Positions 5,288 through 17,814 of a DNA stretch of 17,814 nt are shown in pieces. The notes beneath the pieces were generated by a model that was not told the DNA's origin, did no database searches, and saw only the letters and a program-made list of their open reading frames with translations. The stretch's first letter is position 1, and each line of letters starts with the position of its first letter. The stretch is from an uncultured Phycisphaerales bacterium (GTDB lineage Bacteria > Planctomycetota > Phycisphaerae > WQYP01), in contig CAIPTQ010000048.1 of NCBI GenBank assembly GCA_903868035.1, positions 1-17,814 of the forward strand, read 5' to 3'. A program made the translations under genes and the position numbers.

Positions 5288-7144
5288 ATGGCCAAGAGCA
5301 AAGTGGAATCCTGGCTCGAAGAGATGGAGCGGGAGGCCAATGCGCCCGAGCCGGACGTCGCGGAGGCCGCCGCGGCTCTGGTGCCCTCCGGCGAGGAGGC
5401 GCTGTCGGTGCTGTGGTCGCCGCAGCCCGCGGAAGCCGGCCAGCGCCGGACGGTCGAGGAAATCCTGGTCGCGCAGGGCAAGCTCGAAGGGGAAAAGCTC
5501 CTGCAGGCCCGCAGCGTCCAGGCGACCTCGCGGGGCAAGAAGATCACGCAAATCCTGCACGAAATGGCCGCCGTCAGCGAGGAGGACATCCAGCGCGCCG
5601 TCGCGGAATTCATGGGGCTGGCCTATGAGGCGATCGATCCCAAGAAGGTGGACCGGCGGGCGTTCGACTATCTGCCGTCGGAGTTCATGAAGACGCGCGG
5701 CTGCTGCGGCCTGCGGATCGAGGAGGGGAAACTCACGCTGGGGATGGTCGATCCGGCGGACATTTTTCTGCTGGAGGAAGTCAGGCGCCGCGTGACGTGC
5801 AAAACCGTCAAGGTCGCCGTGGTCTGCCAGGCGCACATCGCCGCGGCCATCGACGCGGGCAACGCCGCCAATAGCGAGGGGGAGAAGTTCGACGAAATCA
5901 TCAAGGACATGGGCCAGGAGGAACTGGAGATCGTCGAGGAGGAGAAGGAGGAGGTGACGGACCTGGCGCGGGCCTCGGGCGAAAGCCCGATCATCCGGCT
6001 GGTGAACTTCCTGATCTTCGACGCCATCAAGCAGGGGGCCAGCGACATCCACATCGAGCCGCACGAGAAGCGCCTGGTCATCCGCTTCCGCATCGACGGC
6101 GTGCTGTTTGAGGCGATGAATCCCCCGTTCATCATGACCGCCCCGGTCATCTCGCGCCTGAAGATCATGGCCAACCTGGACATCGCCGAGCGCCGCCTGC
6201 CGCAGGACGGCCGCATCCGCACGATGGTCCACGGCCGGCACGTGGACCTGCGCGTCTCGACGGTGCCCACGCAGTACGGCGAGAAAACCGTCATCCGCAT
6301 CCTGGACAACCGCTCCATCATGCTGGGCCTGGAGCAACTGGGCTTCTCCGAGGACATGCTCACCATCCTGCACAAGCAGATCGACCGGCCCAACGGCATC
6401 ATCCTGGTGACCGGGCCCACCGGCTCGGGCAAGACCACCACGCTCTACTCGTGCCTCCGCTGCATGGACGGGGCGAAGATGAACATCAGCACCGTGGAAG
6501 ACCCGGTGGAATACCACCTGGCCTTCGCCAACCAGATTCAGGTCCATGAGCGCATCGGGATGACTTTCTCGGCGGCGCTCCGCGCCCTGCTGCGGCAGGA
6601 TCCGGACGTGATCATGCTGGGTGAGATCCGCGACACGGAGACCGCCCACATCGCCGTGCAGGCCGCCATGACCGGGCACCTGGTGCTCTCGACGCTGCAC
6701 ACCAATGACGCGCCCAGCTCCGTGACGCGGCTGATCAACATCGGCGTCGAGCCGTACCTGATCAGCGCGGCGGTAAACGGCGTGCTGGCCCAGCGGCTGG
6801 TGCGGCGCATCTGCGGCGAGTGCAAACAGCCCTGGAAGCCCGAAGACCCGGACATGTGCGAGTTTCTCACCTCGCACGGCTTCGACCCGGACAAAATCTA
6901 CAAGGGACGCGGCTGCGACAAGTGCCGGAACACCGGCTACAAGGGCCGGGTGGGCATCTATGAACTGCTGATCCTGGACGACGTGGCGCGCGACCTGGTG
7001 GTCCGCAGCCCCAACGTCACGGAACTGCGCCGCATCTGCCGGGAGCGCGGCATGATCAGCCTCCGCGAGGACGGCCTGCACAAGGTCGCCGCGGGGCTGA
7101 CCACGATTGAAGAGGTGTTATCGGCAACAGAGAACACGATGTGA
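5288..7144 (+). CDS. pilB: Type IV pilus extension ATPase PilB (GspE family)
   Basis: This is the cytoplasmic hexameric ATPase that powers pilus polymerisation. The Walker A box GPTGSGKT is at residues 376-383, and the Walker B IMLGEIRD starts at I442 with E446. The Asp box (PQDGRI) and His box (LVLSTLHTN) are also visible. A C-terminal zinc site is formed by C509, C512, C543 and C546, typical of extension ATPases. The N-terminal part (about residues 55-195) matches the GspE/MshE N-terminal domain: the segment GKKITQILHEMAAVSEEDIQ resembles half of the c-di-GMP-binding MshEN motif, so nucleotide regulation is possible but not shown. The 618 residues fit PilB. It precedes pilT and pilC in the same direction, which favours a pilus over a type II secretion system. 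Confidence 0.94.
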   Translation: MAKSKVESWLEEMEREANAPEPDVAEAAAALVPSGEEALSVLWSPQPAEAGQRRTVEEILVAQGKLEGEKLLQARSVQATSRGKKITQILHEMAAVSEEDIQRAVAEFMGLAYEAIDPKKVDRRAFDYLPSEFMKTRGCCGLRIEEGKLTLGMVDPADIFLLEEVRRRVTCKTVKVAVVCQAHIAAAIDAGNAANSEGEKFDEIIKDMGQEELEIVEEEKEEVTDLARASGESPIIRLVNFLIFDAIKQGASDIHIEPHEKRLVIRFRIDGVLFEAMNPPFIMTAPVISRLKIMANLDIAERRLPQDGRIRTMVHGRHVDLRVSTVPTQYGEKTVIRILDNRSIMLGLEQLGFSEDMLTILHKQIDRPNGIILVTGPTGSGKTTTLYSCLRCMDGAKMNISTVEDPVEYHLAFANQIQVHERIGMTFSAALRALLRQDPDVIMLGEIRDTETAHIAVQAAMTGHLVLSTLHTNDAPSSVTRLINIGVEPYLISAAVNGVLAQRLVRRICGECKQPWKPEDPDMCEFLTSHGFDPDKIYKGRGCDKCRNTGYKGRVGIYELLILDDVARDLVVRSPNVTELRRICRERGMISLREDGLHKVAAGLTTIEEVLSATENTM

Positions 7145-7145
7145 C

Positions 7146-7222
7146 GGTAATTGGTGATTAGTAATTGGTAATTGGGCAACCGATTACCGGAGCCGACTAA
7201 CTAATTACCAATTACCAATTAC
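7146..7222. repeat. Period-7 repeat array forming an inverted repeat (GGTAATT type)
   Basis: Four forward heptamers GGTAATT, GGTGATT, AGTAATT, GGTAATT occupy 7146-7173. Three reverse-complement units AATTACC, AATTACC and a truncated AATTAC occupy 7203-7222. GTAATTGGTAATTGG (7161-7175) and its exact complement at 7208-7222 give a perfect 15-bp stem, and a longer imperfect 22-bp pairing starts at 7147. The array fills almost the whole spacer and ends right before the pilT ribosome binding site AAGGA (7223-7227). It is AT-rich in a GC-rich region. Confidence 0.9.
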
Positions 7223-7233
7223 AAGGATTCGCC

Positions 7234-8292
7234 ATGTCCAACCTGCACGACATCCTCAAGACCGCCCTCGACAACAAGGCGTCGGACATCCACATCATGG
7301 TGGGCCAGGTGCCGCTGCTGCGGTTGCACACCCAGATGACGCCGACGGATTATCCGCTGGTGACGGCCGACAGTGCCCTGCGCATGCTCCAGGAAATGAT
7401 CAGCGAAAAGCGCATGGAAAAGTTCATGGACAATCGCGACGCCGATTTTTCGTATGAAATCCCGGGTCTGGCGCGGTTCCGCGTCAACGCCCACTTCCAG
7501 CGCGGCTCGGTGGCCATGGCCTTCCGCGTGATCACCGACAAGGTCCGCGCCTTGGACGCCCTCAACCTCCCCGAAGTCATCACCCGCCTGACCTACCTGC
7601 CGCGCGGCCTCGTCCTCGTCACCGGCGACACCGGCTCGGGCAAATCCACCACGCTGGCGGCGATGATCGACGCGATGAACAAGCGCTACCACAAGCACAT
7701 CATCACCCTGGAAGACCCCATCGAATACCTGCTGCACTCCAACAAGTGCGCCATCGAGCAGCGCGAAGTGGGCAGCGATGTGCCCAGCTTTGGCAGCGGC
7801 CTCAAACACGTCCTCCGCCAGGACCCCGACATCATCCTCGTGGGCGAAATGCGCGACCTGGAAACCACCTCCGCCGCCATCACCGCCGCCGAAACCGGCC
7901 ACTTCGTCCTCTCCACCCTCCACACCGGCACCGCCGCCCAGACGATCGAGCGCATCATCGACATCTATCCCGGCGAGCAGCAGAACCAGATTCGCTCGAT
8001 GCTCTCCAACACCCTCCAGGCCGTGGTCTGCCAGGTGTTGTTCAAGCGCATCGACCAGCCGGGGATGGTGCCGGGGGTGGAGATTCTCATATGCACGCCC
8101 GCCGTGCGGAACCTGATTCGCGAAAACCGGATTTACGAAATCGCCAATGTGATCGAAACCTCGCGCGCCCTGGGCATGCAGACCATGGACACCTCGATCA
8201 AGCAGCTTTACTTCAACGGCAAAATCAGCAAGGAAGACGCCGTGGCCATGGCCCACCATCCGGAAAAACTGGAGCGGCAACTGGTGGCGTGA
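7234..8292 (+). CDS. pilT: Type IV pilus retraction ATPase PilT
   Basis: This is the twitching-motility ATPase that drives pilus disassembly and retraction at the inner-membrane platform. The N-terminal PAS-like domain starts with KASDIHIMVGQVP, the usual PilT opening. Walker A GDTGSGKS lies at residues 131-138, and Walker B IILVGEMRD starts at I200 with E205. The His box LSTLHTG follows. A290-V-R-N-L-I-R-E297 matches the AIRNLIRE motif required for retraction in characterised PilT proteins, with one conservative change. Unlike PilB there is no zinc site, as expected. The 352 residues are standard. AAGGA 6 nt before the ATG supports the start. Both flanking spacers consist of heptameric inverted-repeat arrays. 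Confidence 0.95.
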   Translation: MSNLHDILKTALDNKASDIHIMVGQVPLLRLHTQMTPTDYPLVTADSALRMLQEMISEKRMEKFMDNRDADFSYEIPGLARFRVNAHFQRGSVAMAFRVITDKVRALDALNLPEVITRLTYLPRGLVLVTGDTGSGKSTTLAAMIDAMNKRYHKHIITLEDPIEYLLHSNKCAIEQREVGSDVPSFGSGLKHVLRQDPDIILVGEMRDLETTSAAITAAETGHFVLSTLHTGTAAQTIERIIDIYPGEQQNQIRSMLSNTLQAVVCQVLFKRIDQPGMVPGVEILICTPAVRNLIRENRIYEIANVIETSRALGMQTMDTSIKQLYFNGKISKEDAVAMAHHPEKLERQLVA

Positions 8293-8296
8293 ACAA

Positions 8297-8369
8297 GGGT
8301 ATAGGGTTCAGGGTTTAGGATATCGGACGTAGCGCCCTAAACCCTAACCCCTAAACCCTATACCCTAAA
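8297..8369. repeat. Period-7 repeat array forming an inverted repeat (GGGTTTA type)
   Basis: Forward heptamers GGGTATA, GGGTTCA, GGGTTTA and a degenerate GGATATC occupy 8297-8324. Reverse-complement units CCCTAAA, CCCTAA(C), CCCTAAA, CCCTATA, CCCTAAA occupy 8335-8369, with one inserted C. The GGGTATAGGGTT arm at 8297-8308 pairs exactly with AACCCTATACCC (8354-8365). The array fills the pilT-pilC spacer up to the pilC ribosome binding site (GAAGGT). Confidence 0.9.
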
Positions 8370-8388
8370 CCCCCGAAGGTAACACGGT

Positions 8389-9615
8389 ATGCCCAGTTAT
8401 CGCTACGAAGTGAAGACCTCCGCCGGCCAGGTGCAGGCCGGCGTGCTGAATGCGGCCTCGATGTCCGCCGCTTCGGAGATTCTGCGCGGGCAGCAGAGCT
8501 ACATCCTCGCCCTGGCCCCCTCCGACCACTCCCGCGCCAAGTCCTCCCTCTCCGGTTTGCTCAACTTCTCGGTCTCCTCCGGGCCGGGCCTCAAGGATGT
8601 CTCCAACTTCACCAACCAGCTCGCGGTGATGATCAAGGCCGGCATCAGCATCCGCGCCGCCCTGGATGCCATCGCCGAGCAAACCGAAAATCCCAAGTTC
8701 AAGATCATCCTCACGCAGATCAAAAAGGATGTCGAATCCGGCAAGTCCTTCTCCGACGCCCTCGCGCGCTATCCCAAGACCTTCAGCCCGCTGTACATCA
8801 ACATGGTCAAGGCCTCCGAACTTTCCGGGTCGTTCGGGCAGATGCTCGAACGCATCGTCGAATACCTCAACGCCCAGCTCGAAACGCGGCAGATGGTGGT
8901 CGGGGCCATGGTCTATCCGTGCATCATCTTCATCATGGCGGTGGGCACCACGATCTTCCTGCTGCTGTTCGTCGTGCCGCAGTTCGTCTCGATTTTCAAG
9001 GGCAAGGAAAACATCCTGCCCCCGCCGACCAAGGTGCTGTTGTTCCTGTCGAGCTTCATGAAAACCTACTGGTATCTGCTGCTGCTGGGCGCCGGGGGCG
9101 CGGCCTGGGGCTTTGTCACCATGATCCACACGCAATGGGGCCGGCTCTGGTGGGACAAAACCAAGCTGACCGTCCCGCTCTTCAAGAAGATGTTCCGGGC
9201 GCTCTACATCACGCGGTCGCTGCACACGATGGGCGAGCTGGTGAACGCGGGCGTGCCGATGCTCGACACGCTGGCGATCACAGCGGACATCTCGGGGAAC
9301 CTGTTGTACCGGCGGATGTGGCGGGCGGTGTACGCCAGCGTCAAGCAGGGGAAGAAAATCAGCCAGCCGCTGCAGAAAAGCCCGCTGCTCCCGCGCGCCG
9401 TGGTGCAGATGATCGCCGCCGGCGAGGACTCCGGAAAACTGGGTGAGACGCTCGACAGCGTGTCGAAGTTCTACAACAAGGAACTCAAGGCGACGATCAA
9501 GGCGGTGACGAGCATGATCGAGCCGATCATGATCGTGGCGATGGGGGCGATCGTCGGGTTCATCGCGATGTCGATCATTCTGCCGATCTTCAAGATGAGC
9601 CAGTTGGTGAAGTAA
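8389..9615 (+). CDS. pilC: Type IV pilus inner-membrane platform protein PilC (GspF family)
   Basis: PilC is the polytopic platform on which PilB and PilT act. Two copies of the GspF/PilC cytoplasmic helical domain are visible: FTNQLAVMIKAGISIRAALD early, and RSLHTMGELVNAGVPMLDTL in the second half. Hydrophobic helices lie after each domain: CIIFIMAVGTTIFLLLFVV, YWYLLLLGAGGAAWGFV, and the C-terminal IVGFIAMSIILPIF. The 408 residues match the family. GAAGGT 9 nt before ATG 8389 is an acceptable ribosome binding site. It ends the pilus cluster. No recognisable terminator follows. Confidence 0.95.
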   Translation: MPSYRYEVKTSAGQVQAGVLNAASMSAASEILRGQQSYILALAPSDHSRAKSSLSGLLNFSVSSGPGLKDVSNFTNQLAVMIKAGISIRAALDAIAEQTENPKFKIILTQIKKDVESGKSFSDALARYPKTFSPLYINMVKASELSGSFGQMLERIVEYLNAQLETRQMVVGAMVYPCIIFIMAVGTTIFLLLFVVPQFVSIFKGKENILPPPTKVLLFLSSFMKTYWYLLLLGAGGAAWGFVTMIHTQWGRLWWDKTKLTVPLFKKMFRALYITRSLHTMGELVNAGVPMLDTLAITADISGNLLYRRMWRAVYASVKQGKKISQPLQKSPLLPRAVVQMIAAGEDSGKLGETLDSVSKFYNKELKATIKAVTSMIEPIMIVAMGAIVGFIAMSIILPIFKMSQLVK

Positions 9616-9645
9616 GAACGCGTTGCTCGCATTGAAGATCAACGG

Positions 9646-9674
9646 TTCATTCCCCCCTAAGCTTGCGGTATACT
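9646..9674 (+). promoter_or_regulatory. Candidate sigma70-type promoter for the DUF1080 gene
   Basis: TATACT at 9669-9674 matches the -10 consensus at five of six positions. TTCATT at 9646-9651 is a weak -35 at a 17-nt spacing. Transcription would start near 9681, about 40 nt before the proposed TTG start. Judged by eye. Confidence 0.35.
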
Positions 9675-9720
9675 TCCCTCTCCATATTCCCGATGTCCCA
9701 TGTCCCACGAGAGGCCCACT

Positions 9721-11238
9721 TTGAATACCATTACCACTCTTCCCGCCGTCACCCTTAAGAAAACCCTCATCAGCATCGCCACCGCCGCCGCCATCCTCAG
9801 CGTCGGCATCCTAATCGGCACCGCCGCCAGTCAACCACCCGCCCAACCAGCCACCCCCAACACCCCCACCGCACGTGGCCCCCGCGGTGGACGTGCTGGT
9901 GGCGGTGTCGTACCCAATGCCACCCCCGCGCAAAGCGCCGCCCTGGCCCAGATGAACGCCGAACTGGCCCCGCTCCTCCAGACGCTCATCGCCGCACGGA
10001 CGGACTTATACAATGCGGCCTTCGCCGTGCCGCGGAATGATGCCGCCCTTGTGGACAGGATCATCGGGGTCAAAGTCGCCGAACTGGCGCTGGCCAACAC
10101 CCGCGCCCAAGCTTTGGCGAAAATCCAAGCCACCCCCGACAAACTCACCCCCGACCAAGTCGCAACACTTGCCGCCGCACCCGCCCCACCCGCCGCCGGA
10201 CGCGGAGGCCTGACCGTCAACACTGCGATCCTGAACTCCAACCAGGTCGCCTTTCTGACCCAGATGACCGGCATCACCCAGAAACTCACGCCCCCGCTCA
10301 CGGCCGCCCGGGCCGCGCTGACGGCGGCGGCCCTGGCCGACCCGCGCGACGATGCCGCCATCAAGGCCCGGCTCGATGCCGTCGTCGCCGCCGAAACCAC
10401 CCTGGCCTCCACCCACGCTGGAGCCCTGGCCAGGTTCCAGGCCACTGCCGACAAGCTCGCCCCGGAACAACTCGCTGCCTTCATCGCCGCCGGCGGGGTC
10501 ATTGTCTCCGGCAATTTCTCCGAGCCTCAGCCCCTCGACTTCACCGACCATGCCGGCTACGTCTCGCTCTTCGACGGCAAGACCCTCAAAGGCTGGGACG
10601 GCAACCCCAAATTCTGGCGCGTCGAAAACGGCGTCATGGTCGGCGAATCCACCCCGCAAAATCCCAGCGGCAACAGCTACCTCGCCTACCGCGACCTCGA
10701 AGCCCACGATTTCACTCTCAAGCTCGAAATCAAGGTCGAAGGCTCCGGCGGCAGCGGCATCCAGTACCGCAGCCACACCGGCATCCCCTGGCTCACCGCC
10801 ATCGCCCCCAACGTCACCGCCAACGTCGGCCCCGTCAACCTCGATTGGATGATGACCGGACCGCAGGCCGACTTCTGGCCCAGCCGCGACACCACCGCCA
10901 AATACACCGGCCAGTTCTATTCCGAAAACACCCCCATGCGCATCATGGCCTTTCGCGGCCAGGTCGTCGAAGGCGCCGGCATGGGTACGCGGCGACTGCT
11001 GGGCAACATCGGCGACCGCGACGTCCTGGGCAAGGTGGTCAAATTGAACGACTGGAACCAATACACCGTCATCGCCCGCGGCGGCACGTTCATTCATATT
11101 GTCAACGGGCAACTGATGTCCGTTATGATCGACGATGATCCGACGTCGTCCAACAATTGGTCGGGGCAGATCGGCCTTGAAATCGAGGCCACGACCAAGG
11201 TCTCCGTGCGCAATATCTGGCTCAAGAAACTGAATTAG
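9721..11238 (+). CDS. Exported DUF1080 (3-keto-disaccharide hydrolase family) protein with duplicated helical segment
   Basis: The C-terminal part (about residue 279 to 505) is a DUF1080 domain (PF06439), a concanavalin-like sandwich: GYVSLFDGKTLKGW, FWRVENGVMVGES and GSGGSGIQYRSH are hallmarks. The family is linked to 3-keto-glycoside hydrolysis and to glycan binding; the substrate here is unknown. A hydrophobic N-terminal helix (TLISIATAAAILSVGILIG) indicates export or membrane anchoring. Residues 69-153 and 170-258 are two similar alpha-helical units ending KIQATPDKLTPDQVATLAAA and RFQATADKLAPEQLAAFIAA. Start choice: ATG 9700 has no ribosome binding site, while TTG 9721 has GAGAGG (9709-9714) 6 nt upstream, so I chose TTG. 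Using ATG 9700 would add seven residues. Confidence 0.85.
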   Translation: MNTITTLPAVTLKKTLISIATAAAILSVGILIGTAASQPPAQPATPNTPTARGPRGGRAGGGVVPNATPAQSAALAQMNAELAPLLQTLIAARTDLYNAAFAVPRNDAALVDRIIGVKVAELALANTRAQALAKIQATPDKLTPDQVATLAAAPAPPAAGRGGLTVNTAILNSNQVAFLTQMTGITQKLTPPLTAARAALTAAALADPRDDAAIKARLDAVVAAETTLASTHAGALARFQATADKLAPEQLAAFIAAGGVIVSGNFSEPQPLDFTDHAGYVSLFDGKTLKGWDGNPKFWRVENGVMVGESTPQNPSGNSYLAYRDLEAHDFTLKLEIKVEGSGGSGIQYRSHTGIPWLTAIAPNVTANVGPVNLDWMMTGPQADFWPSRDTTAKYTGQFYSENTPMRIMAFRGQVVEGAGMGTRRLLGNIGDRDVLGKVVKLNDWNQYTVIARGGTFIHIVNGQLMSVMIDDDPTSSNNWSGQIGLEIEATTKVSVRNIWLKKLN

Positions 11239-11248
11239 CCTCGTGGAA

Positions 11249-11268
11249 ATGGACGTTCATTCGTCCAT
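11249..11268 (+). terminator. Hairpin after the DUF1080 gene
   Basis: ATGGACG (11249-11255) and CGTCCAT (11262-11268) form a perfect 7-bp stem with a 6-nt loop, 10 nt after the stop codon. There is no T run, so termination is uncertain. It may instead only protect the mRNA end. Confidence 0.3.
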
Positions 11269-11343
11269 CCCGCCTTGCCGCCGGACAGGTTTCACGCGAG
11301 AATGCCCGCGCCGTTCGGTAGTACCATCAAACGGAGATTTCAT

Positions 11344-12399
11344 ATGCGGCGCGTTCCCCTGACTCTTCTCCTATCCGCCCTGGCCGCCGCGGTTTTCACC
11401 GCCTGCAGCACGCCGGAGCCACTTGAAGGCTCCCACCGCGGAGACAACCCCGCCATCCCCGCCGCCCTACTCGCCCCGGCCGTTCTTCCCGGCAAGGGCC
11501 TCGCCGAGCATCCCTTCCTGTACACCGGCGAATGGGACACTCGCCGCAATGACCAAATCATGTCCCTCGTCCGCGACGGCAAGGTCGTCTGGTCGTATTC
11601 CATCCCCCTCAACGATCCCAACGGCGTCCTCGAAGAACTCGGCGACGCCACACTGCTTTCCAACGGCAACATCGCCTTCTGTCGGAAGATCGGCTTCTCC
11701 GTCATCACGCCCGACAAGAAAATCCTCTGGAGCATAGAGGCCCCCAAGGGCACCGAGATGCACTCCATCCAGCCCCTCGGCACGGACCGCGTCATGGTCG
11801 TCCAGAACGGCAACCCCGCCAAGGCCATGACGATCAACATCCTCACCGGCAAGGTCGAAAAGGAAGTCATCCTGCCCACCGGCAAGCCCGACACGCCCCA
11901 CATGCAGTTCCGCCGCGTCCGCCTCACCAAGGCCGGCACCTACCTCGCCGGCCACCTCGATATGAACAAGGTCAGCGAGTACGACGACACGGGCAAGGAA
12001 ATCTGGACGGTGAAGGCCAACCAGCCCTGGTCCGTCGTGCGCCTGGACAACGGCAACACGCTCATCGGCTGTTCCCAGGACGGCGTCCGCGAAGTCAACC
12101 CCAAAGGCGAGACCGTGTGGGACTTCACCCAGAAGGATTGCCCCGACATCAAGCTCTTCACGATTCAGGAAGTCAGCCGGCTGGCCAACGGCAACACCGT
12201 GCTGTGCAACTGGTGCCCCTACCTCGTCAAAAGCTCAAAGGACTGGCCCAATTCCGTGCAGGTTCTGGAAGTTACCCCCGACAGGAAAGTGGTGTGGGCG
12301 TTGCGCTCCTGGACGGGCGCTGCCGACCTGGGACCGGCGTCGTCGATCCAACTGCTCGACCAGCCGGGCATTCCCGAGAAGCTCGAACAGCAGCGCTAA
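11344..12399 (+). CDS. Lipoprotein with beta-propeller (PQQ/arylsulfotransferase-like) repeats
   Basis: This is a predicted lipoprotein: MRRVPLTLLLSALAAAVFTAC is a short signal peptide ending in a lipobox (F18-T19-A20-C21). The mature part is a series of blade-like repeats such as GNIAFCRKIGFSVITPDKKILW, RLDNGNTLIGC followed by VREVNPKGETVWDF, and RLANGNTVLCN. The DNGNTL / G-x-x-V-W pattern is typical of PQQ-like and arylsulfotransferase-like propellers. I see no catalytic motif, so it is probably a binding or scaffold protein at the cell surface. The frame is open to 11275, but ATG 11344 has GGAG at 11333-11336 and begins the signal peptide, so it is the start. Its TAA overlaps the stop codon of the convergent acyl-CoA synthetase gene. 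Confidence 0.82.
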   Translation: MRRVPLTLLLSALAAAVFTACSTPEPLEGSHRGDNPAIPAALLAPAVLPGKGLAEHPFLYTGEWDTRRNDQIMSLVRDGKVVWSYSIPLNDPNGVLEELGDATLLSNGNIAFCRKIGFSVITPDKKILWSIEAPKGTEMHSIQPLGTDRVMVVQNGNPAKAMTINILTGKVEKEVILPTGKPDTPHMQFRRVRLTKAGTYLAGHLDMNKVSEYDDTGKEIWTVKANQPWSVVRLDNGNTLIGCSQDGVREVNPKGETVWDFTQKDCPDIKLFTIQEVSRLANGNTVLCNWCPYLVKSSKDWPNSVQVLEVTPDRKVVWALRSWTGAADLGPASSIQLLDQPGIPEKLEQQR

Positions 12400-14084
12400 G
12401 ACCGTATCCCAAAAAACCGCCGTATCCGCGCCACGTAACGGAGCATCTTACGCCGCCGGCGAATCCGCCCCCGCGCGGATTTCGCCTCCGCCGCCGCCCG
12501 CGTCCGCAGTTCCACCCGGCGAATCTTCCCCGAGACCGTCTTGGGCAACTCCGCCACAAATACAATCTGCCGTGGATACTTGTATGGTGCCGTCACCCGT
12601 TTGCAGTGCGCCTGCAACTCGCGCTTGAGCTGCTCGCTGGCCGCATACCCCGGCCGCAGCACCACATACGCCTGGACGATCTCGCCACGCAGTTCCTCGG
12701 GGACGCCGATGGCCGCCGAATCCAGCACGGCCACATGCTCCTGGAGGGCGGATTCCACCTCGGAAGGCCCGATGCGATAGCTGGCGGAGTTGATCACGTC
12801 GTCGGCCCGGCCCACAAAGTAAAAGTAGCCCGCAGCGTCGCGATAGCCGGTGTCGCCGGTGAGGTAGAAGTCCCCCGCGTGCCGGGCCGCGGTTTCCGCG
12901 GGATTTTTCCAATATTCCTGAAACAGCGGCAGGGGCCGGTCGGGTTTGACGCGCACGGCGATCTGGCCCGTTTTGCCCGGGGGCAGTTCGCGCGCGTCTT
13001 CGTCAACGATGGTGATGTCCAGACCGGGGGCGGCGCGGCCCATCGAACCGGGGCGGGGTTCAATGTCGCCCAGCGCGCGGAAGTAGCCGATCAGGCAGGT
13101 GGTCTCGGTTTGTCCGTAGCCTTCGCAGATCGTCAGGCCGGTGCCGGCCTTCCACGCCGCGGCGACGGGGGGATTGAGGGCCTCGCCGGCGGAGACGCAA
13201 TGCCGGAGTTTGGCGAAGCGGCAGGCGGCGAGGTTTTTGCGGACGAGGAGGCGCAGGGCCGTGGCGGGGGCGCAAAAGACGGAGATGGGGTAGCGTTCAA
13301 GGGTTTTAAGGATGACCCCGGGATCGAACTTGCCGCGCATGTCCATGGAGAAGACGGTGGCCCCCTGAATCCACGGGCCGTAGAAGTTGGACCAGGCGGT
13401 CTTGGCCCAGCCGGTGTCGGCCAGGGCCCAGATCATGTCACCCGGGGAAAGGTCGAGCCAGTATTTGCCGGTGATCGTGTGGCCCAGGCCGTAGGAGGCC
13501 TGGGTGTGGAGGACCATTTTGGGTTCGCCGGTGGTGCCGGAGGTGAAGTAGATGACGCCGGGGTCCGCGGCGGGCGTGGGGGTGTAGGGGAAGTCATCGG
13601 GTGCGGCGGCCAGGCCGGGTTCCAGCCGCGTCCAGCGGGGCAGGTCGCCGCCGACGAGGATGCGGCGGCCTGCAAAGGACTCGTCCACCTTGGGGGCGTT
13701 GGCGACATCGGTGATGACGGCGGCCACTTCGGCGGCGGCCAGGCGATAGGCGACATCCTTGGCGGTGAGCAGGGGCGTGCCGGGGATGGGGACCGCGCCC
13801 AGGCGAATCAGGCCGAGCATGACGACCCACCACTCGGGGATGCGCGGGAGGATCAGGAGCACGCGGTCGCCGGGGCGGATGCCGAGCGCGGCAAGGAAGG
13901 CGGCGGCGCGGCGGGCGTCGCGGGTGATTTCGGCGAACGTGATTTTGCGCTCCTGCGTGGATTGCTCATCGACCCACCAGAGGGCCAGGGCGTCGGGTTG
14001 CCGGGCGGCCCAGCGCTCGACGACGTCGTGGGTGAAGTTGAAGTGGGCGGGGACGTCGGCGAATGGTGATTGGACGGTATTCAC
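12396..14084 (-). CDS. Acyl-CoA synthetase (AMP-forming, medium-chain ACSM-like)
   Basis: This is an adenylate-forming enzyme that activates a carboxylic acid with ATP and joins it to CoA. The core motifs are in order: P-loop YFTSGTTGEPK at residues 179-189, GYGQTETT, YLTGDTGYRD, GRADDVINSASYRIGPSEVE, and PKTVSGKIRR with the catalytic Lys K520. The segment FNFTHDVVERWA and the W-rich DTGWAKTAWSNFYGPW resemble medium-chain acyl-CoA synthetases, but the chain-length preference cannot be read. After K520 the protein continues about 40 residues with a very basic tail (RGRIRRRRK, RRFFGIRS) that I do not recognise from the family. It starts with GTG at 14084 without a ribosome binding site; TAGAAT lies 9 nt upstream. 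It diverges from dusB and ends overlapping the propeller gene. Confidence 0.92.
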   Translation of the reverse strand: MNTVQSPFADVPAHFNFTHDVVERWAARQPDALALWWVDEQSTQERKITFAEITRDARRAAAFLAALGIRPGDRVLLILPRIPEWWVVMLGLIRLGAVPIPGTPLLTAKDVAYRLAAAEVAAVITDVANAPKVDESFAGRRILVGGDLPRWTRLEPGLAAAPDDFPYTPTPAADPGVIYFTSGTTGEPKMVLHTQASYGLGHTITGKYWLDLSPGDMIWALADTGWAKTAWSNFYGPWIQGATVFSMDMRGKFDPGVILKTLERYPISVFCAPATALRLLVRKNLAACRFAKLRHCVSAGEALNPPVAAAWKAGTGLTICEGYGQTETTCLIGYFRALGDIEPRPGSMGRAAPGLDITIVDEDARELPPGKTGQIAVRVKPDRPLPLFQEYWKNPAETAARHAGDFYLTGDTGYRDAAGYFYFVGRADDVINSASYRIGPSEVESALQEHVAVLDSAAIGVPEELRGEIVQAYVVLRPGYAASEQLKRELQAHCKRVTAPYKYPRQIVFVAELPKTVSGKIRRVELRTRAAAEAKSARGRIRRRRKMLRYVARIRRFFGIRS

Positions 14085-14093
14085 AGCGAGGGG

Positions 14094-14121
14094 ATTCTAC
14101 GCGTCTTGGGCGCGCGGTGAA
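14094..14121 (-). promoter_or_regulatory. Candidate promoter of the acyl-CoA synthetase gene
   Basis: On the minus strand TAGAAT (14099-14094) matches -10 at five of six positions, with TTCACC (14121-14116) as a -35 (four of six) at 16-nt spacing. The -10 ends 9 nt before the GTG start, so the RNA would have almost no leader. Confidence 0.35.
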
Positions 14122-14141
14122 AGGATCGCGGCATTCGGGTT

Positions 14142-14168
14142 TTGCCCCCGCGCCGGTGAAGGTACTAT
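14142..14168 (+). promoter_or_regulatory. Candidate promoter of dusB
   Basis: TACTAT (14163-14168) is a -10-like hexamer (four of six) with TTGCCC (14142-14147) 15 nt upstream. It ends 8 nt before ATG 14177, which would give a leaderless mRNA. The GAAGGT at 14158-14163 is an alternative but distant ribosome binding site. Judged by eye. Confidence 0.25.
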
Positions 14169-14176
14169 TGGATTCA

Positions 14177-15229
14177 ATGACTATTGCCCCGCTCACCATC
14201 GGCCCCCTCCGCCTGACCACGAATTTGCTTCTGGCGCCGATTGCCGGGTATTGCGATGTGGCGTTTCGGGTGGTGGTGCGCGGGCTGGGGGGGGTGGGGC
14301 TGGCGTGTACGGATTTGCTCTGTCCGGAGGGGATACTGCGGCAGAAGCGAAGTTCGCTGGCGCTGACGGCGACGTGTCCAGAGGATGCGCCGTTGTGCAT
14401 GCAGTTGTACGGGGCGGATGCCCAGCGGATGTGCGAGGCGGCGCGGTGGGCGGAGGACCGCGGGGCGCACGTCATCGACATCAACATGGGCTGCCCGGCG
14501 GACAAGGTGACCAAGCGCGACGGCGGCAGCAAGCTGTTGTGCGATCCGGACAAGACGTTGCGGATGGTCGAGCAGGTCAAGGCGTGCCTGACGCGGGTGC
14601 CGCTGACATGCAAGCTGCGGCTGGGGTGGGATGACACCAGCATCGTGGCGCCCTACTTGGCGCGGCGGCTCGAGGAGGCCGGCGTGGCGCTGGTGACGGT
14701 GCATGGGCGGACGACGGCGATGCAGTTCACGGGGCAGGTGCGGCTGGAGGGGATTGCGGCGGTGGTGGCGGCGGTGAAGAATATGCCGGTGGTGGGGAAC
14801 GGGGATGTCAAGACACCGGAGGACGCGCGGCGGATGCTGGAGGCGACGGGTTGTGCCGGAGTGATGATCGGACGCGGAGCGCTGGTTCGGCCGTGGATAT
14901 TCCGGGATACGTGGAGCTATCTGACAACGGGGGTGGTGCCCGCCGAACCGACGATTGAAGAGAAGTGCGGGATGATGCGGGAGCATTTTTTGGGGCTGGT
15001 GCGGTTTCGGGGGGAGCGGATAGCGGCGTGCGAGATGCGCAAGCGGATCAGTTGGTATGCGCGGACGATGCATCCGTGCCGGGGGCTGAAGGAGGGGATG
15101 CGGGGGATCAAGACGGGGGCGGATTTTGAGGGGGTGGTGGGGGAGTTTTTGGAGTGGCGGAAGGGGCCTGAGGGGGTGGCGGCGCGGGTGGAGGGGGACG
15201 AAAGCGCCGATGGACTTGAGCGGCTTTGA
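14177..15229 (+). CDS. dusB: tRNA-dihydrouridine synthase, DusB type
   Basis: This is a flavin enzyme that reduces uridine to dihydrouridine in tRNA using NADPH. The N-terminal LLLAPIAGYCDVAFR is the FMN-binding start of the TIM barrel. INMGCPADKV carries the catalytic cysteine C106. VHGRTTAMQFTG, VVGNGDVKTPEDARRML and VMIGRGALVRPWIF are the next conserved blocks, in DusB order. The C-terminal helical domain includes EMRKRISWYARTM. At 350 residues it is slightly longer than most DusB, with a Gly/Val-rich tail. The frame is open to 14063, inside the divergent synthetase gene; ATG 14177 begins directly at the conserved domain and is preferred. It converges on the methyltransferase gene with only 3 nt between stop codons. 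Confidence 0.92.
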   Translation: MTIAPLTIGPLRLTTNLLLAPIAGYCDVAFRVVVRGLGGVGLACTDLLCPEGILRQKRSSLALTATCPEDAPLCMQLYGADAQRMCEAARWAEDRGAHVIDINMGCPADKVTKRDGGSKLLCDPDKTLRMVEQVKACLTRVPLTCKLRLGWDDTSIVAPYLARRLEEAGVALVTVHGRTTAMQFTGQVRLEGIAAVVAAVKNMPVVGNGDVKTPEDARRMLEATGCAGVMIGRGALVRPWIFRDTWSYLTTGVVPAEPTIEEKCGMMREHFLGLVRFRGERIAACEMRKRISWYARTMHPCRGLKEGMRGIKTGADFEGVVGEFLEWRKGPEGVAARVEGDESADGLERL

Positions 15230-15232
15230 TGC

Positions 15233-15955
15233 TCAGTCTTCTTTTTTCATGATGAACAGGTAGTTGAAGCCGCGGAGAAAGTAGTTGCCTTCGACGGCGG
15301 CGGTGTGCCAGTGGTTGCGCTTGAGGGTGCGGTTGTGGCGGACGACGGCGATGATGTCTATGGGTTTGAAGTGTTGGCGGAGGAGGGCGAAGAGCTCAAA
15401 GCCGATGGGCATGAAGGGTTTGCCCTTTTTGAAGGAGTCGGAGACGTAGAGGGCCAGGTAGCGGCGGTTTTTGAGGACGCGGTGGAGTTCGGCGAGAACC
15501 TGGGCCATGGCGGAGTAGTAAGTTTCGAGTTTCGAGTTTCGAGTTTCAAGTTGTTCGCCGGCATCGAGTTTGCCGATGCAGCGGGGGTCATCGGAGTAGG
15601 TGACGTGGGTGGAGTAGGGCGGATCGAGGAAGGCGAAATCGACGGAGGCGCTGGGGAGGGGGATATGGCGGGCGTCGGCCTGTTTGATGTCGGCACGCAT
15701 CGGTGCCAGGTCGAAGCCCAGCGGTTTGCGCTGCAACTCGGCAGCCACATCGATGGTCGTGCCCGAGCCGCACATGGGATCGAGGATGGTGTCGCCTTCG
15801 CGGGTGTAGCGCGAGAGGAGCTGCCAGACGACCCAGGCGGGGGTGGCGCCGACGTAGTCTTTGTCGCCGTGGGGGGTGCGGCCGTAGTCCTGGGAGGGGT
15901 ATTCCCAGAGGGTGGTGGTGAGGAGATGGAGGGGGGGTTTTTGCATGGCGGTCAT
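15233..15955 (-). CDS. DPPY-type SAM-dependent methyltransferase (DNA N4/N6 methylase-like)
   Basis: This is a SAM-dependent methyltransferase. Motif I is DPMCGSGT at residues 59-66, with the acidic ribose-binding region GFDLAP at about 80-85. The catalytic motif IV is DPPY at 111-114, so the order is I then IV. The N-terminus LWEYPSQDYG and the WVVWQLLSRYTREGD helix fit small DNA-methylase-like proteins of COG0863. An RNA substrate of the Trm11 type cannot be excluded. Residues 136-145 (LETRNSKLET) come from a GTTTCGA heptamer array inside the gene and look like an insert between motif IV and the next helix; the frame is kept. The ATG at 15955 overlaps the yajQ stop codon as ATGA, so translation is probably coupled. 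A second in-frame ATG lies three codons on. No restriction gene is adjacent. Confidence 0.85.
   Translation of the reverse strand: MTAMQKPPLHLLTTTLWEYPSQDYGRTPHGDKDYVGATPAWVVWQLLSRYTREGDTILDPMCGSGTTIDVAAELQRKPLGFDLAPMRADIKQADARHIPLPSASVDFAFLDPPYSTHVTYSDDPRCIGKLDAGEQLETRNSKLETYYSAMAQVLAELHRVLKNRRYLALYVSDSFKKGKPFMPIGFELFALLRQHFKPIDIIAVVRHNRTLKRNHWHTAAVEGNYFLRGFNYLFIMKKED
15522..15549. repeat. Four tandem heptamers (GTTTCGA) inside the methyltransferase gene
   Basis: GTTTCGA, GTTTCGA, GTTTCGA and GTTTCAA run head to tail. Read on the coding strand this gives an RNSKLET-type peptide, because three heptamers equal seven codons. There is no inverted arm here, unlike the two arrays in the pilus operon. 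Confidence 0.9.
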
Positions 15956-16714: not shown

Positions 16715-16740
16715 CGTATGACGTATGACGTTGTATACGC
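16715..16740. repeat. Short period-7 repeat with inverted ends in the divergent promoter region
   Basis: CGTATGA (16715-16721) is repeated at 16722-16728, and GCGTAT (16714-16719) is mirrored by ATACGC (16735-16740). The period and the inverted layout match the larger arrays, but it is short enough to be chance or an operator. Confidence 0.4.
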
Positions 16741-17502: not shown

Positions 17503-17814
17503 TTATGGCTGGCTGGCCGGTGCCGTGGCGGCGGTGGCTTCGAGGGCGGTGACTGTGATGATGCGGCGCTGGGCGATTTCGACGCCGGCTTTCAGGGTGA
17601 GGGTGCCCGTGACGCTGGCTTGTTTGCCGTTGAGGCCCTGGGCCTTGGTTTTGAGGGCGGCGTCTTTGATGTCGAGTTCGTACGTGGATTTGCCGTCGCT
17701 GATGATGGTGCCGGTGGTTTCGCCGCCGATGGCCATCATGCCGGTGGTGATCTTGCCGGTGAAGGTGAATGTGGCCGGGGCGGTGGCGGTGGCTGGGGCG
17801 GTGGCGGGGGCGGG
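17503..17814 (-). CDS. Small exported protein with AIGGETTG core, 5' end off window
   Basis: The minus-strand frame is open to the right edge, so the start and probably a signal peptide are outside the window. The visible 103 residues begin with an Ala/Pro/Thr-rich linker and then FTFTGKITTG, MMAIGGETTGTIISDG, YELDIKDAAL, GKQASVTGTLTLKAGVEI, RRIITVTALEA and an Ala/Pro tail. Alternating beta-strand pattern and the GTL/VTG turns suggest a small beta-barrel of OB type, exported to the periplasm. I have an impression of similar AIGGETTG proteins in planctomycetes but cannot name a family. Confidence 0.75.
   Translation of the reverse strand, partial: PAPATAPATATAPATFTFTGKITTGMMAIGGETTGTIISDGKSTYELDIKDAALKTKAQGLNGKQASVTGTLTLKAGVEIAQRRIITVTALEATAATAPASQP

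What the first reader, a model, noticed from the sequence alone, without database searches (positions are those of the whole stretch)
7146..15549. A family of intergenic repeats that shares a 7-bp period and fold-back layout but not sequence
Three arrays in one window (GGTAATT, GGGTTTA, GTTTCGA) and a weak fourth at 16715 share the period 7. Heptameric short tandem repeats are known from filamentous cyanobacteria, but constant period with locus-specific units and self-complementary arms suggests a generating mechanism, such as templated slippage or an enzyme that copies 7-nt units. It may be an undescribed genome-wide system. This is inference from three clear cases.
Basis: inference. Interest (0 to 1): 0.7.

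Follow-up and report, generated by a model that had tools for sequence, protein, structure and literature searches.

The report
Seven-letter DNA repeats, two forming hairpins
This bacterial DNA carries short arrays of seven-letter repeats, two of them folding back between pilus genes; such repeats are a known kind, but related bacteria show different seven-letter repeats at one and the same spot of one protein, which suggests that the length seven rather than the sequence is what gets copied.

Summary
Three period-7 arrays are real and far above chance. Two (7146-7222, 8296-8372) fill the pilB/pilT and pilT/pilC gaps of a type IV pilus operon as hairpins. The third (15521-15547) is neither intergenic nor folded back: it lies in frame inside a DNA methyltransferase gene. 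The fourth (16715) is borderline.

The class is known: heptameric simple sequence repeats, with inverted pairs already reported in Xanthomonas. The source looks like Phycisphaerae; its genome is not held, so the proposed genome-wide test could not be run on it. In 1.0 Mb taken blind from 8 array-bearing genomes of other phyla, period 7 leads overall, but not in every genome.

The useful evidence is the methyltransferase: in 13 of 120 homologs the same loop reads as a heptamer array, with 10 different units. With the loop cut out exactly, 12 of 119 proteins match; residue-shuffled loops give 0.05. A tree built without the loop needs 11 label changes. The period recurs, the sequence does not.

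Best explanation: sequence-blind slippage in 7-nt steps, with template switching making the hairpins. No dedicated enzyme is indicated; 9 of 21 array-bearing draft genomes showed no RVT_1 reverse transcriptase.

The parts
7146..7222 (+). Array 1: GGTAATT-type heptamers, about 4 forward units, a loop, then AATTACC units; a fold-back filling most of the 89-nt gap between the pilB-position stop codon (7142-7144) and the pilT-position ATG (7234)
   Evidence: RNA fold of 7142-7233 z -6.3
8296..8372 (+). Array 2: AGGGTTT-type heptamers, then CCCTAAA units; a fold-back filling most of the 96-nt gap between the pilT-position stop codon (8290-8292) and the pilC-position ATG (8389)
   Evidence: RNA fold of 8290-8388 z -4.1
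15521..15547 (-). Array 3: AGTTTCG heptamers (exact run; the repeat finder extends it to 15552), coding strand minus, encodes LETRNSKLET in a loop of a DNA methyltransferase; no inverted arm
16715..16731 (.). Weak run CGTATGA, 2.4 copies; borderline, may be chance
   Evidence: 0.05 runs of this size expected per window
15233..15946 (-). DNA methyltransferase ORF that holds array 3 (237 aa as translated here; the listed database copy P0001 has 240 aa)
   Evidence: Pfam N6_N4_Mtase; homologs
5288..7144 (+). PilB-type ATPase upstream of array 1 (pil name from domains and position)
   Evidence: T2SSE and MshEN
7234..8292 (+). PilT-position ATPase between arrays 1 and 2
   Evidence: T2SSE
8389..9615 (+). 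PilC-position inner-membrane protein after array 2
   Evidence: T2SSF

Best explanation
These are heptameric simple sequence repeats in a Phycisphaerae-like bacterium. They arise in place by DNA slippage that is blind to sequence but favours steps of 7 nt, and they then lengthen and drift. Shown here: the arrays and their period, the two hairpins, heptamer-type peptides with different units at one protein loop among relatives, and no excess sharing of units between two groups of genomes. Inferred: that polymerase slippage is the step (an idea already in print), that the loops of the relatives are period-7 DNA, and that inverted arms come from a template switch copying an array back on itself. 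Arrays persist where insertion does little harm: between a stop codon and the next ribosome-binding site, or in a tolerant protein loop if the frame is kept. The two hairpins are probably passive intercistronic stem-loops of the pil mRNA.
For: Period 7 far above simulated windows. Loop test: 36 seven-residue windows encodable by a heptamer array, all in the loop region, 13 of 120 proteins, 10 units; with exact loop borders 12 of 119 proteins against 0.05 in residue-shuffled loops (maximum 1 in 300), 0 of 25,574 windows in the rest of the proteins, periods 4 and 5: 0. Tree without the loop: 11 label changes, at least 8 forced for the 'none' label by well-supported branches. Units arbitrary given composition. 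Pooled blind sequence, 999,104 bases: three-copy arrays 10 at period 7, 4 at period 8, 0 at periods 6 and 9-13; two-copy runs at period 7 121 against 77.8 expected. Indels in 7-nt steps between Cyanothece strains are reported in PMC4679880 (section read). Inverted partners exceed reversed and complement controls, 17 against 0 and 1 of 425.
Against: Period 8 also exceeds expectation (4 three-copy arrays, expected 0.00; 2 loop proteins against 0.19, one of them also fitting period 7), so the step is not strictly 7. Period 7 does not lead in every genome sampled: Anaerolinea 0, Aquimarina 1 (period 9: 2), WOR-3 3 (period 8: 4). The 8 genomes were picked because each holds an AATTACC array. Loops of proteins near the window's look like decayed copies of one peptide, so part of the loop record is inheritance. 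P0041 and P0043 are sisters. The DNA of the homologs was not seen, and why slippage should favour 7 is not tested here.
Confidence: 0.62

Rival explanations
1. A dedicated enzyme, for instance a telomerase-like reverse transcriptase with a short RNA template, writes 7-nt units into the chromosome.
For: Constant period with changing sequence. A bacterial reverse transcriptase, DRT10, makes tandem-repeat cDNA with a precise 9-nt period in one system and other lengths in others (PMC12632851, abstract and passages read).
Against: RVT_1 was not found in 9 of 21 draft genomes that hold AATTACC arrays. One template would give one unit, but units differ even at one homologous site. The passages seen link DRT10 to no chromosomal arrays.
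Confidence: 0.07
2. Ready-made heptamer arrays spread between genomes by horizontal transfer or a mobile element, as argued for TAACTGA repeats.
For: The unit AATTACC occurs in several phyla. PMC4679880 preferred transfer over independent origin (sections read).
Against: Different units at one protein site. Apart from AATTACC, unit overlap between groups equals the permuted expectation (4 against 3.6; 978 of 2000 permutations as high). Of the window's other units, GTTTCGA x3 is in 0 of 25 and GGGTTTA x3 in 1 of 25 array-bearing genomes; the reversed control of the latter in 2 of 25.
Confidence: 0.1
3. The two pil hairpins are selected RNA elements that set the relative expression or mRNA stability of pilB, pilT and pilC, and the period 7 only reflects how such hairpins were made.
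For: Strong folds, z -6.3 and -4.1. Both sit between a stop codon and a ribosome-binding-like sequence, both span 77 nt, and both arms of array 2 begin with the same variant unit AGGGTAT.
Against: No DNA of relatives was found to test conservation or compensatory change. No U-run follows either hairpin. Arrays without an exact inverted partner are the rule elsewhere (408 of 425).
Confidence: 0.2

Closest known systems
Heptameric simple sequence repeats of bacteria (long SSRs of Mrazek and co-workers 2007, seen only as reported in PMC4679880 and PMC4692102)
   Same: Unit of 7 nt, several copies, many unrelated units, mostly between genes; slippage tied to the polymerase contact length already proposed.
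   Different: Here in a Phycisphaerae-like bacterium, with a record of different units at one protein loop among relatives.
GGGNATC repeats of Xanthomonas and Nostoc (PMC4692102)
   Same: Heptamer arrays between genes; 70 and 75 inverted pairs in two Xanthomonas genomes (passage read).
   Different: One G-rich unit per genome and a G-quadruplex reading; in the window the units differ from array to array.
TAACTGA repeats of Beggiatoaceae, Cyanobacteria and Bacteroidetes (PMC4679880)
   Same: Heptamer arrays just upstream of start codons, some translated inside ORFs, 7-nt indels between strains (sections read).
   Different: One unit, mostly unpaired arrays (169 sets and one indirect repeat in the main genome, abstract); transfer was preferred as the origin.
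Four-copy heptanucleotide elements of Geobacter metallireducens (PMC2700814)
   Same: Tandem heptamers between and within genes, 49 places (passages read).
   Different: A dispersed family with one consensus, GGACCGG.
DRT10 tandem-repeat cDNA (PMC12632851)
   Same: Short tandem repeats with a fixed step made by an enzyme (passages read).
   Different: RNA-templated cDNA; the reported example has a 9-nt step, others vary; no link to chromosomal arrays in the passages seen.

Membership tests
Heptameric bacterial simple sequence repeats | Tandem units of 7 nt, longer than expected by chance | tested here: met
   (three arrays; the fourth is borderline)
Heptameric bacterial simple sequence repeats | Many such arrays across the genome | not testable with these tools
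   No genome held for the window; three clear arrays in 17.8 kb
Heptameric bacterial simple sequence repeats | Preference for non-coding DNA | tested here: inconclusive
   Two of three clear arrays intergenic, one coding; too few to test
Heptameric bacterial simple sequence repeats | Copy-number change in 7-nt steps between close relatives | not testable with these tools
   No DNA of close relatives found
Inverted heptamer pairs as in Xanthomonas | Two arrays of one unit on opposite strands close together | tested here: met
   Arrays 1 and 2; array 3 does not have it
Intrinsic transcription terminator | Stem followed by a run of T | tested here: not met
   No T-run after either hairpin in the sequence
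Product of a templated reverse transcriptase (DRT10-like) | Reverse transcriptase present in array-bearing genomes | tested here: inconclusive
   RVT_1 in 12 of 21 draft genomes, none found in 9; the window's own genome is not held
Product of a templated reverse transcriptase (DRT10-like) | Adjacent non-coding RNA template with the unit sequence | not tested
   No reverse transcriptase locus in hand for the window's organism

The most novel reading that the evidence does not exclude
Bacteria of many phyla share a sequence-blind activity with an intrinsic step of 7 nt (a repair polymerase or another factor) that repeatedly founds new heptamer arrays, also inside genes, and sometimes folds them back; the methyltransferase loops are a natural record of its action in Phycisphaerae.
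Probability: 0.12. Interest if true: 0.8.

Novelty: new member of a known kind. Interest (0 to 1): 0.42.

Why it matters
Why bacterial tandem repeats favour seven bases is open: slippage tied to the polymerase and horizontal spread have both been proposed (PMC4679880, PMC4692102). A single protein loop at which relatives carry different heptamers separates these ideas: descent or transfer of one array predicts one unit, sequence-blind birth predicts many. It also explains odd peptides such as LETRNSKLET or IGNRQSAIGN in predicted proteins as translated repeats.

Tried and rejected
Shared repertoire of units across phyla: suggested by AATTACC in many phyla, given up.

Fold-back as a rule: a similarity score against shuffled flanks looked overwhelming (80 of 430 against 2), but reversed and complement controls gave 58 and 53. 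Mirror-symmetric units inflate such controls. With exact matches and those units removed (100 of 525 arrays dropped) 17 of 425 remain against 0 and 1.

Units chosen to be stop-free on one strand: not seen (0.769 observed, 0.802 permuted, sd 0.023). Mirror-symmetric units in excess: not clear (0.148 against 0.116, sd 0.024).

DNA of relatives: PilT-position protein in viral contigs, no relative; methyltransferase in viral contigs, one distant partial match, 43% over residues 47-90; in plasmids, 11 records, all under 60% identity, none a planctomycete among the organisms listed. A second protein search with P0092 listed 120 proteins, only 5 of them new.

Plant telomere (TTTAGGG) contamination for array 2: rejected because it sits between two pil genes. 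Some of the 18 viral-collection matches of GGGTTTA x3 could be such; not pursued.

Literature: 7 searches. Heptamer, intergenic, tandem repeats and planctomycet together gave 1 paper. That I met no earlier report of the loop pattern rests on these searches alone, in one open-access library.
Full report
What is in the window. GGTAATT units lie at 7146-7175 and their complement at 7203-7222; CCCTAAA units at 8335-8372 with a complementary left arm from 8296; AGTTTCG units at 15521-15552. Against 300 order-3 Markov copies of the window, period 7 has 2 runs with 13 or more exact matches (expected 0); periods 6 and 8 have none. The longest run has 20 matches, the simulated maximum is 12. The run at 16715-16731 has 10 matches (0.05 such runs expected); one at 9693-9707 has 8 (0.66 expected). 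Exact-run counting misses array 2, whose units alternate and show as period 14.

Setting. Pfam gives PilM, PilN and PilO proteins, a T2SSE/MshEN ATPase (5288-7144), a second T2SSE ATPase (7234-8292) and a T2SSF protein (8389-9615) on the plus strand; I name the last three pilB, pilT and pilC from domains and order. Array 1 takes 77 of the 89 nt between pilB stop and pilT start, array 2 takes 77 of the 96 nt between pilT stop and pilC start, and each ends shortly before a purine-rich, ribosome-binding-like sequence. As RNA they fold at -35.3 and -39.0 kcal/mol, z -6.3 and -4.1, with no shuffle of 200 as stable. No T-run follows. The minus strand of array 2 holds several GGG tracts; G-quadruplexes were not tested.

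Array 3 differs. It lies on the coding strand of a DNA methyltransferase ORF and reads LETRNSKLET between the conserved stretches IGKLDAGE and YYSAM. It has no inverted arm and no unusual fold (z -1.4). So 'intergenic' and 'fold-back' hold for two of the three clear arrays.

The loop as a test. Of 4353 homologs at E <= 0.001 the best 120, the window's own included, were listed; the five with an organism in the name shown say Phycisphaerae. Their loops vary in length and sequence, with peptides such as LKTQDSRLKT, QKSEVRSQ, IGNRQSAIGN and KDERRKTKDERR. A heptamer array read in frame gives a 7-residue repeat, so I listed every 7-residue peptide that a heptamer array can encode (11,256). They occur 36 times in the 120 proteins, all in the loop region, in 13 proteins with 10 different units. 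With exact loop borders (119 proteins; P0115 did not fit the border pattern and is left out) 12 proteins match; shuffling residues within loops gives 0.05 on average (maximum 1 in 300), the rest of the proteins 0 of 25,574 windows, and periods 4 and 5 give 0. Period 8 gives 2 proteins against 0.19; one, P0070, fits both periods. A maximum-likelihood tree of the 119 without the loop needs 11 changes of label; for the label 'none' well-supported branches force at least 8. Labels are nearly as scattered as shuffled ones (shuffled mean 12.0), with slight clustering (as low in 2 of 200), P0041 and P0043 being sisters. Changes may be gains or losses. Against full independence, the loops of P0002, P0003, P0006, P0011 and P0013 resemble the window's peptide, some as if decayed. 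The DNA of the homologs was not available.

Other genomes. Three copies of AATTACC were found in at least 120 stretches of bacterial genomes (the scan stopped at its limit), mostly Cyanobacteria, with Chloroflexi, Bacteroidetes, WOR-3/Stahlbacteria, Falkowbacteria and Gammaproteobacteria by record title. In these 120 and 6 viral-collection loci, all chosen for an array, 306 runs with 14 or more matches have period 7, 42 period 14, 13 period 8. Blind stretches, 60 of them and 999,104 bases, came from 8 non-cyanobacterial genomes, each known to hold an AATTACC array. Pooled runs with 11 or more matches: 26 at period 7, 13 at 14, 8 each at 8, 9 and 12, 5 at 15, 4 at 10, 3 at 6, 2 at 11, 0 at 13. 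Three genomes show no lead of period 7: Anaerolinea 0, Aquimarina 1 (period 9: 2), WOR-3 3 (period 8: 4). In the Chloroflexi G020 period 7 (1) is below its multiple 14 (2). Three-copy arrays: 10 at period 7, 4 at 8, 1 at 14, 3 at 5 where 2.8 are expected, 0 at 6 and 9-13; two-copy runs at period 7, 121 against 77.8 expected.

Is the sequence shared? Leaving out AATTACC, unit sets of cyanobacterial (80) and other loci (41) share 4; letter-permuted units share 3.6, with 978 of 2000 permutations as high. GTTTCGA x3 is in 0 of 25 array-bearing genomes, GGGTTTA x3 in 1 of 25, and the latter's reversed control in 2 of 25. The units look arbitrary given composition; the sample is small.

Fold-back. 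A first test was misleading. With exact matches of at least 11 nt within 100 nt, and 100 mirror-symmetric arrays of 525 removed, 17 of 425 arrays have an inverted partner, against 0 reversed and 1 complemented. It is real but a minority form. By eye, L037 and L065 carry composite arrays in mirrored order, as if an array had been copied back on itself; that step is inference.

Mechanism. A templated enzyme would need a new template for each unit, and RVT_1 was found in only 12 of 21 array-bearing draft genomes. Spread of ready-made arrays does not predict different units at one protein site. Slippage with a favoured step near 7 fits; it was proposed by Mrazek and co-workers as reported in PMC4679880 (introduction) and PMC4692102 (discussion). 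I did not see the original. Period 8 above expectation says that the preference is not absolute.

Literature. PMC4692102 (abstract, introduction, discussion, passages) reports 70 and 75 inverted heptamer pairs in two Xanthomonas genomes. PMC4679880 (abstract, sections 3, 9, 10, 15) reports TAACTGA arrays, 7-nt indels between strains and translated repeats, and judged independent origins less likely than transfer. Passages only: PMC6749651 (heptamer-derived satellites, a table row for a planctomycete), PMC2700814, PMC2651432, PMC12632851 (its abstract included). The class is known; the loop pattern was not met in the seven searches made.

Verdict. The useful part is the loop record, which bears on why seven.

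Noticed in passing
L192:100-230, 1112-1201, 8527-8632: Three fold-back heptamer arrays on one viral-collection contig share the stretch TTTGCCTTTACTG at the start of the right arm, as if they were copies of one dispersed hairpin element; a fourth fold-back-like array with another unit lies near 10298.
   Followed up: no
L191:1496-1566 and L195:5295-5369: Paired arrays whose two arms carry related but different units (for instance AAGGCAG facing AAGTCAG), as if each arm had been homogenised on its own after the inversion.
   Followed up: no
[quoted passage not shown] the reading frame was not checked with a tool.
   Followed up: no
window 7146-7222 and 8296-8372: Both pil hairpins span exactly 77 nt, eleven heptads, although their units differ.
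   Followed up: no
window 9693-9707: ATGTCCC is duplicated across the ATG of the ORF at 9700; at chance level for the window.
   Followed up: partly
window 17764-17813: GC-rich repeat of 6/18-nt period at the window's end, probably a coding low-complexity stretch.
   Followed up: no
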